A stretch of DNA of 64,000 nt from contig CP099839.1 in NCBI GenBank assembly GCA_030062745.1, forward strand, positions 6,433,115-6,497,114, in the 5' to 3' direction. Numbering within the stretch: the stretch's first letter is position 1; each line of letters starts with the position of its first letter. Below the pieces are notes generated by a model. It did no database searches and was not told the origin of the DNA. It saw only the letters and a list, made by a program, of their open reading frames with translations. Both the position numbers and the translations under genes were made by a program. Positions 8,931 to 51,915 of the stretch are shown here, one piece after another. Source of the stretch: Capitulum mitella (lineage: Eukaryota > Arthropoda > Thecostraca > Pollicipedomorpha > Pollicipedidae).

Positions 8931-9230
8931 GAACACGTGCGTCTGCGCTGTGTTCATCCACAACGAATGAAGAGCATGGCTGAAGATTTCTGAAAATTAC
9001 TGGCAGGGATGGGGGGGAGGTGCCTGGAGAATATGAATGGTGAACGGTAAACAAGGGAGAGCTTCACAAAGATTTGAGACCATTTGTCTGCAGTCAGTGT
9101 CAGATGTCTAATGTCAAAATATCTTAAGCATATGTGTGTGGGGGGGGGGGGCAGACCCTACCAATCTGCAGGATCCCCATCCATAATAAAGATGATTCAC
9201 TGCGGCAATAATGCGCATGCATATGCAAGC
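8931..9230. other. Short AT-richer spacer with G-run
   Basis: No gene is seen. A run of about ten or more G begins near 9,139. Confidence 0.6.
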
Positions 9231-9690
9231 GTGAATCACGCCAATGGCACGGCAACCACGTGGAACGAACGGCATTCACGCCCGGATACCCACGCGCAGC
9301 CGATGGTCCCAGACCGACCCGGCGAGCCCCGTACACGCGTGCACGGGCCGGGCCGAGCCGGCCGGCGCGACTGCACGGGCCATACATCAGCCGGGCGCGA
9401 GGCCGGCCGACGCGGCGTGTTCGCGCGCCGTGCGGCTCCCAGGCCCGGCCGGGATCACCGCGTGAGCCGCGAGCGCGTGGCCCGCGCGCGCGACAGATTA
9501 GGTGCGGCGCGAGCCATTAGGCCGGCGCTGAAAACGCTAACGACGTCGCTTCAACGGCCGCGCCCGGGCCGCGAAGCGCGAGACGGCGGGGAGTCGGCGA
9601 CGCGGGCGAGTCGGCCCGGGCGGGCGTGGCACGTTCAGGAATACTACCTGGCAGAGCAGCCGAGAAGTTGCTGAAACCGAAACCGCGCTG
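9231..9690. promoter_or_regulatory. GC-rich island 5, downstream of mir-10
   Basis: CpG-dense block on the 3' side of mir-10. It contains GCGAGCCATTAGGCC and AAAACGCTAACGACG cores. Open frames such as 9084-9674 are compositional. It may be a regulatory element; there is no direct evidence of activity. Confidence 0.35.
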
Positions 9691-10091
9691 TCGTCGTTGA
9701 CGCCAAAGGCCCCGTGAATTCTTGGATGAACGGCAGCTGATTCGTCTTCCTCCGATGGCACCTTGCGTCCGACCTGCACAGCTAACCTGCGAACGTTTCC
9801 GGGGAGACATTGCCACTGCCCTGCAAATGATAAATTACGGTGAACAAGGGTCGAATGACAAGTATACTTGGCGTGCATACGTTTCCCAGTGCAATAACAA
9901 CTCCCCGTGGGCGTCAAACACTCCCGAGACTTCCTGGTTTGGGTTTGCAAAGCCGGAAGCCAGGGTGGGCTCTTGCTAGAGCTGTCTGGTTGGCTTGTTC
10001 ACTCATTCATAAATACTTGACTTCATTCATAGTCCTCGACTGCAGCGTGAGCGATCACCATCTTCTGCCGACGAATAATAATGTTCCACAC

Positions 10092-10114
10092 AAACCTCTC
10101 TAGAACCGAATTTG
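10092..10114 (-). ncRNA. mir-10: mature miR-10-3p
   Basis: This 23-nt segment is the 3p product. It equals fly miR-10-3p as remembered, starting CAAAUUCGGUUCUAGAG. Such strong conservation of this arm across arthropods suggests that it is also a functional guide and not only a passenger strand. Confidence 0.92.
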
Positions 10115-10128
10115 TTCTTTCAGTGCTC

Positions 10129-10150
10129 ACAAATTCGGAACTACAGGGTA
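10129..10150 (-). ncRNA. mir-10: mature miR-10-5p
   Basis: This 22-nt segment is the 5p product. It keeps the seed ACCCUGU and the 3' part CCGAAUUUGU of the family. The only difference from the common arthropod sequence I recall is U at position 11, in the centre of the guide, where Argonaute slicing would occur. Seed-based targeting should be unchanged. Confidence 0.93.
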
Positions 10151-10255
10151 GATGTAGAGCATATTGCGGTGACAGGACGGGCTGGCAGCGGCGTTTGACC
10201 GTCTCTGCGTGCTCTCGGGCCAGCCCCTCGCCATCGAACGCCCCGCGGACAGGAT

Positions 10256-24675: not shown

Positions 24676-25038
24676 ATCCCTCGAAAATGGTTTAAACATG
24701 AAACAAAAGAGCACTGAGATGGCTGTCAGAAAGTCACGTGATTTTTTGTGTGAGACGGCGCGAGGGGACGGCTGCTGAGTCGGCGGCAGACATGGCCGAC
24801 GATCCGACGGACGCTACCGCACGGCTCTAGCAGTGTCTGTCTCTGACTGCGCTGAGGATGGAAAATGGCTTATGGTAACCAGTGACGTTGAATGACTTGG
24901 GGAACGTGTCCTGGTTATGAGAAAACTGTTGCATGCTGATTAGGCGCTTTGTTTTACATGTAAAAAGTACAGAGGCTCTGGGTGTTTTCGGAAAAAAGGA
25001 CTTTTTTATCCTGGAATGGCGGCTCTTATAGAAAACGA

Positions 25039-25061
25039 CAGAAAGTCACGTGATTTTTTGT
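25039..25061. repeat. Central palindrome around CACGTG, also found at 24,727-24,749
   Basis: This 23-bp segment is identical to the left terminal segment of the foldback element. It holds the E-box CACGTG and is the hinge of the large inverted repeat. Confidence 0.8.
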
Positions 25062-25343
25062 CGTTTTCTATAAGGACCGCCATTCCAGGATAAATAAGTT
25101 CGTTTTTCCGAAAACATCCAGAACCTCTTTACTCTTTACAAGTAAAACAAAGCGCCTAATCAGCATGCAACAATTTTCTCATAACCAGGACACGTTCCCC
25201 AAGTCATTCAACGTCAGTGGTTATCATAAGCCATTTTCACTTCCTCAGCGCAGTCAGAGACACACACCGCTAGCGCTGTGCGGTAGCGTCCGTCGGATCG
25301 TCGGCCATGTCTGCCGCCGACTCAGCAGCCGTCCCCTCGCGTC

Positions 25344-25355
25344 GCCCCCCCCCCC
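25344..25355. repeat. C homopolymer run
   Basis: A run of about twelve C within the right arm of the foldback element. The left arm lacks the corresponding G run, so the arms have diverged here. Confidence 0.8.
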
Positions 25356-39939: not shown

Positions 39940-40017
39940 AAGTAAGTTTTTGAGGGGTTCAGATCCAAGTTGGAGGGGCCGTGGGCCCTCCAAAAGAATA
40001 CAGATCGACACCCCTGA
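39940..40017. mobile_element. Possible end of a second CAGTGGCGTAGCC-type insert
   Basis: TTTTTGAGGGGTTCAGATCC, GGAGGGGCC and CTCCAAAAGAATACAGATCG followed by ACACCCCTG recall the internal style of such elements and resemble 38,850-38,880. No clean terminal repeat is visible. Confidence 0.35.
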
Positions 40018-45894: not shown

Positions 45895-46440
45895 GAACCT
45901 TAAGTTAACGAAACCTTCGTTACTTACGTTTTCCTTTCGCACGCTTTTCCTTACGAACCTTGTTCCTATGAATTTTTTTCATAGGAAACCTTTTGCTGTA
46001 CAAACATTTTTCATTGGCAAGACGAACTTGTCCTAGACGAACTTTTGCCCTTAAGAACTCTTGTACTAGACAAACTTCTGCATGACGGACTTTTGTTCTA
46101 AACAAACTTTTGCTTCATGCAAGCTTTTGCCTTATACAAACATCTGTCCTAGACGAACTTTTGCAAGAAAAACTTTTGTCCCAGACGAACCTTTGCTCTT
46201 GACGAACTTTTGATCTAGACGAACTTTTACAAGGCGAACTTTTGTCCTCAACGAACTTTTACCCTCGATGAACTTTTGCTCTGGGCGAACTTTTTAAACA
46301 ACGAACTTTTGCACGACAAACTTTGTCCCAGACGAACTTTTGCGCGTCGAATTTAAGCACCACGAATTTTTTCTGACGAACATTAGTCCGACAAAGTTTT
46401 GTCCGACATACTTCTGCGACACGAACTTTTGCCCTAAAAT
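45895..46440. repeat. Degenerate GACGAACTTTTG minisatellite
   Basis: About 30 units of (A)GACGAACTTTTG followed by a variable 3-7-base spacer such as TCCTA or CCCTT. Unit length is about 13-18 bp. It blends on the left into the TTCGTCGGACTATAC region and the TTAGG run. Minus frames rich in R-A-K-V-R come from it. Confidence 0.85.
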
Positions 46441-51380: not shown

Positions 51381-51640
51381 CCCTCTGCCGGAGCCGGGGG
51401 GCGGGGGCCGTCCACCGACCGCTCGCGCGAGGGGAGCGCTCCCTCTCCCGCCCCATTAGGCGCAGGCCGCCGCCGTCGTCGGGGCCGGCGCGCCGAGGTC
51501 GCGTGCGTCGACGACGACGATGACGAATGTTCACGCAGCCGCGTATTATTTATCGTGTCATCGGCGCCGAGGTGGACCGCGGACCGGGCCGCTAAACGGG
51601 CAGGGTGGGCCGCTGCGTGGTTAACGTAGACTACTGGCTG
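51381..51640. promoter_or_regulatory. Small GC-rich island 21
   Basis: Short CpG-dense block with a GACGACGACGATGACGA run and the core CGCGTATTATTTATCGTG near 51,541-51,558. It abuts a minisatellite on the right. Confidence 0.4.
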
Positions 51641-51915
51641 GGCGAGATGGACACTAGATGGGCAGAGTTTGCCGCTGGATAGACAGGGTGAACCACCAGA
51701 TGGACAGGGGGAACCGCTGGATGGACAGGGTGGACCGCTAGACGGGCAAGGTGTACCGCTGGATGATCAACGTAGACCACTGGCTGGGCAGGACGGACGT
51801 TGAACTGGCAGGGTGAACAACTGGATGGACAGGGTGGATCGCTGGATGCACAGGGTTGATTGCTGGATGTACAGCTTGGACTGCTGGATCACGAAGGACC
51901 TCTGGATAAGCAGAG
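51641..51915. repeat. About 20-bp minisatellite (GCTGGATGGACAGGGTGGACC)
   Basis: About a dozen units of 20-21 bp, such as CGCTGGATGGACAGGGTGGA with variants CACTGGCTGGGCAGGACGGA and TGCTGGATGTACAGCTTGGA. The ends are more diverged than the centre. Confidence 0.9.

What the first reader, a model, noticed from the sequence alone, without database searches (positions are those of the whole stretch)
10086..10157. mir-10 identifies an arthropod Hox-cluster window
The 3p arm (starting CAAAUUCGGUUCUAGAG) and the GUGUGG flank equal fly mir-10 as remembered, and the stem pairs as expected. mir-10 is fixed between Dfd and Scr in arthropods, so one 72-nt hairpin gives this otherwise gene-free 64 kb a place and direction in the genome. 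Dfd should lie left and Scr right, both on the minus strand.
Basis: partly seen in the sequence, partly recalled or inferred. Interest (0 to 1): 0.85.

Follow-up and report, generated by a model that had tools for sequence, protein, structure and literature searches.

The report
mir-10 hairpin in barnacle Hox cluster

Summary
A mir-10 precursor lies on the minus strand at 10086-10157 (RF00104, full length, 46.1 bits, E 2.2e-9; 1.4 bits under the curated cut-off). The window is G000:C1:6433115-6497114 of a 477-Mb, 16-contig genome. Dfd lies left (start codon C1:6416554) and Scr right (first in-frame stop 495 bp past the window edge), both minus, as predicted. mir-993 and iab-4/8 are in place too. 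The genome fits the stalked barnacle Capitulum mitella. A second, reduced cluster on C10 holds mir-993, mir-10, Antp and Ubx; PMC11331182 already reports exactly this for C. mitella. "Fixed between Dfd and Scr" is too strong: no Dfd or Scr homeobox was found beside the second mir-10, and two mites deviate (PMC4862073). Small additions: both copies have U instead of A at position 11 of the 5p arm, and the hairpin is the only non-repetitive window DNA that aligns to the C10 stretch read. By-catch outside the window: abd-A, called absent or incomplete in print, has a complete homeobox split by an intron.

The parts
10086..10157 (-). mir-10 precursor hairpin (copy A)
   Evidence: RF00104 full-length match at 10087-10157, 46.1 bits, E 2.2e-9; fold z -3.30
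10129..10150 (-). miR-10-5p arm, UACCCUGUAGUUCCGAAUUUGU; seed ACCCUGU; position 11 is U where the Rfam consensus has A
   Evidence: coordinates; consensus; mature ends are inferred, no reads
10093..10114 (-). miR-10-3p arm, CAAAUUCGGUUCUAGAGAGGUU, identical in copy B
   Evidence: mature ends are inferred, no reads
10081..10163 (.). only non-repetitive stretch of the window that aligns to the 37.8 kb of the C10 cluster that were read (84 columns, 88% identity)
   Evidence: E <= 1e-3, low-complexity filter on; the one other window match (39959-40016) is a dispersed repeat, 40 matches listed including itself

Best explanation
This is the mir-10 gene of the main Hox cluster of a thoracican barnacle, most likely Capitulum mitella. 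It is on the same strand as the nine Hox genes found there, 26.6 kb upstream of the Dfd start codon and 54.3 kb downstream of the first in-frame stop of Scr. Inferred from general miRNA biology: it is transcribed within the Hox domain, cut by Drosha and Dicer, and either arm can load into Argonaute. 5p (seed ACCCUGU) and 3p (seed AAAUUCG) then repress mRNAs in the body region where the locus is open. Also inferred: the locus was duplicated with the barnacle whole-genome duplication. The second copy survives with mir-993, Antp and Ubx on another contig; no Dfd, Scr or ftz homeobox was found in the stretch read there.
For: Shown: Rfam match and fold. Cluster A, all on C1 minus: lab 6177366, pb 6258345, mir-993 6341936, Dfd homeobox 6402028 and start 6416554, mir-10 6443200, Scr stop 6497609, homeobox 6497870 and exon 1 near 6545584 (MSSYQFVDSL...QVYPWMKRVHIGQS), ftz 6565879, Antp 6656327, Ubx 6759940, abd-A 6894308, Abd-B 7037623; an iab-4/8 hairpin at 6981900. 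Constraint: against copy B the hairpin is 88% identical over 84 columns while the flanks do not align; 5p differs at 1 of 22 bases, 3p at 0 of 22, and the loop is diverged. Organism: 477,042,490 bases in 16 contigs; passages of PMC11331182 give 16 chromosomes, an earlier 478-Mb C. mitella assembly, an intact cluster and a small Antp-Ubx-miR-993-miR-10 cluster.
Against: The hairpin is 1.4 bits under Rfam's gathering score, and at E up to 10 the same family search also rings in 5 of 14 bacterial and archaeal control genomes, none over the cut-off. No small-RNA reads. miR-10 seed sites are not clearly enriched on the mRNA strand of the 134 kb from Dfd to Scr: the five 7-mers tried occur 3, 1, 10, 7 and 4 times where about 8 each would be expected of random DNA (my arithmetic). 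The nearest ones lie 6.6 kb (3p) and 8.1 kb (5p) beyond the Scr stop, and none lies in the 8.6 kb left of the Dfd stop. So repression of Scr or Dfd has no support here; their 3' UTR ends are unknown.
Confidence: 0.96

Rival explanations
1. The hairpin is a decayed remnant of mir-10 that still resembles the gene but is no longer processed.
For: Score just under Rfam's gathering cut-off and one stem pair lost at 5p position 11.
Against: Both arms are nearly identical between two copies whose loops and flanks have diverged. Both copies share the position-11 base, so that change is old and the arms have since been held.
Confidence: 0.03
2. The match is a stray mir-10-family member (mir-100 or mir-993 type, or a retrocopy) outside any Hox cluster.
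For: The genome holds at least five RF00104 places (8 rows, three of them the opposite strand of another), and one mir-10 copy does lie away from Dfd and Scr.
Against: 5p reads UACCCUGUAG, not AACCCGUAG as in the two mir-100 copies. Dfd and Scr flank it in the expected order and strand.
Confidence: 0.01

Closest known systems
mir-10 (Rfam RF00104; MIR-10-P1 in the naming used in PMC12220506, passages)
   Same: Full-length match, seed ACCCUGU, both arms, position between Dfd and Scr, same strand as the Hox genes
   Different: U at position 11 of 5p where the Rfam consensus has A, which breaks one stem pair; score 1.4 bits under the gathering cut-off
Hox clusters of Capitulum mitella as published in PMC11331182 (passages)
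   Same: Main cluster with miR-993, miR-10 and iab-4/8, plus a small second cluster of Antp, Ubx, miR-993 and miR-10; Hox3 not found
   Different: The paper calls abd-A absent, or in C. mitella an incomplete segment that suggests loss of function; here its homeobox is complete across two exons
Duplicated mir-10 of the horseshoe crab Limulus (PMC4987109, passages)
   Same: mir-10 kept in more than one copy in a lineage with whole-genome duplication
   Different: A separate lineage. PMC4987109 says mir-10 was not duplicated in any other ecdysozoan it surveyed; barnacles are an addition, already stated in PMC11331182

Membership tests
mir-10 (RF00104) | Match to the covariance model over its whole length, far above chance | tested here: met
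   Model positions 1-74 of 74, E 2.2e-9; E 6.2e-8 genome-wide
mir-10 (RF00104) | Rfam gathering score 47.5 (an operational cut-off, not a biological feature) | tested here: not met
   46.1 bits. The two mir-100 copies pass (56.9, 52.2); copy B has 41.3
mir-10 (RF00104) | Seed ACCCUGU at positions 2-8 of the 5p arm | tested here: met
   UACCCUGUAG...; that this is the family's seed is recalled
mir-10 (RF00104) | Stable hairpin with both arms in one stem | tested here: met
mir-10 (RF00104) | Hox-cluster position between Dfd and Scr | tested here: met
   Copy B in the same genome does not meet it as far as read
mir-10 (RF00104) | Small-RNA reads from both arms with precise 5' ends and 2-nt 3' overhangs | not testable with these tools
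   no read data
Capitulum mitella (organism) | 16 chromosomes, about 478 Mb (Chen assembly as cited), and a second cluster of Antp, Ubx, miR-993, miR-10 | tested here: met
   477,042,490 bases in 16 contigs; C10 cluster; compared with passages of PMC11331182, whose own assembly is 512.06 Mb
Capitulum mitella (organism) | Species-level sequence identity (mitochondrial or named nuclear record) | not tested
   no named barnacle sequence was at hand

The most novel reading that the evidence does not exclude
Barnacle mir-10 does not need its classical neighbours. After the genome duplication the second copy kept both arms almost unchanged while Dfd, Scr and ftz were lost from around it, and both copies carry the same unusual base at position 11 of 5p. 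The pair would be two active genes, the second now under the control of an Antp/Ubx-only cluster and so probably expressed in the cirrus-bearing thorax.
Probability: 0.4. Interest if true: 0.45.

Novelty: already known. Interest (0 to 1): 0.25.

Why it matters
It shows that one short conserved RNA can place and orient an otherwise featureless 64-kb window, here checked against the whole genome. The caution also matters: of the two mir-10 copies found in this genome, the other would have misled anyone who expected Dfd and Scr beside it. The surviving second copy gives a natural test of whether mir-10 depends on its Hox neighbours.

Tried and rejected
Organism: arachnopulmonates, pseudoscorpions above all, were first suspected because of the two clusters and the missing Hox3. 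Dropped because PMC4987109 found mir-10 duplicated in no surveyed ecdysozoan but Limulus (passages), because Cordylochernes scorpioides has 18 Hox genes and a 3.6-Gb genome (PMC8136511 passages), and because the barnacle paper fits.

Conserved non-coding DNA between the clusters: besides the hairpin, one window stretch (39959-40016) aligned to the C10 stretch; it is a dispersed repeat, 40 matches listed including itself, 40 of 81 candidates scored. Outside the window, one search also showed simple-repeat matches, a 1.2-kb match of 93.6% between C1:6505570-6506789 and C10 that looks like a mobile element, and short matches at 71-77%, one of them near Antp; these were not followed up.

miR-10 sites near Scr and Dfd: no clear enrichment. 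mir-1003 match at 9215-9293: E 0.043, 24.9 bits against a cut-off of 90, treated as chance. Scans of viral and bacterial contigs for the 5p arm (A or T at position 11): 0 matches each (records near this genome may be left out there). Paper search for the 5p letters with U at position 11: 0 papers (supplements not searched).

Full report
Observation. The minus strand at 10087-10157 matches Rfam mir-10 over the whole model, 46.1 bits, E 2.2e-9. It is 1.4 bits below the gathering score, which is why the default Rfam scan of the window found nothing. The strand folds better than all of 200 dinucleotide shuffles. The 5p arm is UACCCUGUAGUUCCGAAUUUGU at 10129-10150 and the 3p arm CAAAUUCGGUUCUAGAGAGGUU at 10093-10114. 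The rest of the window shows no gene as far as tested: no convincing Hox match, no tRNA, no Pfam family in the 10 longest of 119 listed ORFs.

Place. The window is G000:C1:6433115-6497114 in a genome of 477,042,490 bases in 16 contigs. A homeodomain search gave 123 matches (196 candidates, 150 scored; 0 of 14 control genomes rang). Nine of them, at C1:6.18-7.04 Mb, form one cluster, all on the minus strand: lab, pb, Dfd, Scr, ftz, Antp, Ubx, abd-A, Abd-B. Names rest on the translations, read with recalled diagnostic residues, and on gene order. Dfd was checked further: exon 1 begins MSSFLMNSGPYVDPKFPPSEEYSQGSYIP, start codon at C1:6416554, and a 44-residue query from it finds only this place in the genome. 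An IYPWMKKIHV motif follows about 0.5 kb further on, but in another frame than the start codon: a small intron or an assembly error, not resolved. Scr has its first in-frame stop after the homeobox at C1:6497609, 495 bp beyond the window, and a first exon near C1:6545584 that reads MSSYQFVDSLSNW...QVYPWMKRVHIGQS (the search E-value was only 0.98, so the identification rests on the translation and the position). mir-10 thus lies 26.6 kb upstream of the Dfd start codon and 54.3 kb downstream of that Scr stop.

The other Hox microRNAs are in place. mir-993 is at C1:6341936, between pb and Dfd; its 3p arm has 1 mismatch to the recalled fly arm (2 matches, 1 in the reversed-pattern control). No Hox3 homeobox appeared between pb and Dfd among the matches, which scored only part of its candidates.

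Second cluster. C10 holds mir-993 (28017980), mir-10 (28039216), Antp (28055373) and Ubx (28093573), all minus. From mir-993 to Antp, 37.8 kb were read (28017700-28038300 and 28038900-28056100; 599 bases between them were not). tblastn with the genome's own Dfd, Scr and ftz homeodomains finds there, at E <= 0.5, only the Antp homeobox; recalled N-terminal and YPWM queries gave only weak matches, E 0.026 or more. No second Dfd exon 1 was found in the genome (1 match). The only non-repetitive window DNA that aligns to this stretch is 10081-10163, 88% identical over 84 columns. Between the copies the 5p arm differs at 1 of 22 positions and the 3p arm at 0 of 22; the loop is diverged. I read this as a microRNA held by selection on both arms. 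Both copies have U at position 11 of 5p, where the Rfam consensus has A, so the change is probably older than the duplication. Two mir-100 copies (C7:28375190, C9:4000281) also fit a genome duplication. The genome search with RF00104 scored 59 of 28,499 candidates, so further copies are not excluded; at E up to 10 it also rang in 5 of 14 control genomes, none over the cut-off.

Organism and prior report. PMC11331182 (passages read) describes C. [quoted passage not shown] Our genome has the same anatomy, though its contig numbers (C1, C10) differ from the paper's Chr3 and Chr7. I take it to be C. mitella or a near relative; Pollicipes pollicipes, also with 16 chromosomes and extra Antp and Ubx, is less likely (its larger genome is recalled). 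The arrangement is therefore already known. I did not see the 5p base change in print: a search for the letters returned no paper, but supplements and closed journals were not searched.

Mechanism. Inferred from general miRNA biology: transcription with the Hox domain, processing by Drosha and Dicer, loading of either arm. Passages of PMC4987109 say that 5p dominates in the spider Parasteatoda and in Tribolium and 3p in Drosophila, and that both arms are detectable in Parasteatoda and Drosophila. The seed of each arm is intact here by comparison with recalled seeds. A direct role on Scr or Dfd is not supported: the five 7-mer sites tried occur 3, 1, 10, 7 and 4 times on the mRNA strand of 134 kb, about 8 each being expected of random DNA, though the 3' UTR ends are unknown.

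The general rule. 'mir-10 is fixed between Dfd and Scr' is usually true but not always: Tetranychus and Metaseiulus deviate (PMC4862073 passages), and so does copy B here as far as it was read.

By-catch: abd-A. PMC11331182 calls abd-A absent in four barnacles and, in C. mitella, an incomplete segment that suggests loss of function. Here the exon at C1:6894308-6894454 encodes homeodomain residues 1-49 without a stop and ends in CAG|GTGGGT. After 1,711 bases comes TATTCAG|AATCGCCGC, encoding NRRMKLKKELRAVREINDKAK (E 0.0016). Joined, they give a complete homeodomain (57 of 57 positions, 76.1 bits) and the first 13 of 24 positions of Pfam Abdominal-A (17.6 bits, under its cut-off of 25); the Ubx peptide in the same call has no Abdominal-A match. 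Among solved structures two Ultrabithorax chains score highest (122.2, 119.6), abdominal-A third (113.0), and the homeodomain shares 51 of 57 residues with this genome's Ubx, so the name abd-A rests on position and on the ELRAVREIN stretch. PMC9582164 (passages) reports an abd-A-like gene with a half-size Abdominal-A domain in Amphibalanus amphitrite, which agrees. So the 'incomplete segment' may be one exon of a whole homeobox. Against this: abd-A N-terminal exons were not found with a recalled query (9 matches, best E 0.183, none on C1), and no transcripts were seen. A paper search for barnacle, abdominal-A, homeobox and intron listed 3 papers; in the passages I saw of two of them no such intron is mentioned, and the third (PMC10914929) I saw only in the listing.

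Noticed in passing
G000:C1:6892510-6894454 (minus), outside the window; L031: abd-A homeobox is complete but split by a 1,711-base phase-0 intron with GT-AG ends at WFQ|NRR; PMC11331182 calls the gene absent or incomplete in barnacles. An intron at this spot could also have hidden the gene from homeobox PCR (inference; primer sites recalled).
   Followed up: partly
G000:C10:28017700-28094300: Reduced second Hox cluster: mir-993, mir-10, Antp, Ubx, with no Dfd, Scr or ftz homeobox in the parts read between mir-993 and Antp; already reported for C. mitella in PMC11331182.
   Followed up: yes
[quoted passage not shown] the strand of the Hox genes carries the iab-8 form (arm names recalled).
   Followed up: partly
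G000:C1:6416017-6416554 (minus), L021: Dfd exon 1: the start-codon frame and the IYPWMKKIHV motif lie in different frames: small intron or assembly error.
   Followed up: no
G000:C7:28375190 and C9:4000281 (L009, L010): Two mir-100 copies with identical 21-nt 5p core; no let-7 or mir-125 match (up to 3 mismatches) within about 1.5 kb of either.
   Followed up: partly
window 24756-25344: Large near-perfect foldback: arms of 189 nt (92%) and 110 nt (93%) complementary, probably a mobile element.
   Followed up: no
window 51589-51889 and 46020-46432: Diverged minisatellite arrays, periods 21 and 146 in the first and 15-83 in the second.
   Followed up: no
window 39959-40016: Member of a dispersed repeat, 40 matches listed in the genome including itself.
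   Followed up: yes
G000:C2:2472794 and C2:2550211: Two homeoboxes of opposite strand, 77 kb apart, with identical protein sequence in the overlapping stretch read: recent duplication or assembly artefact.
   Followed up: no
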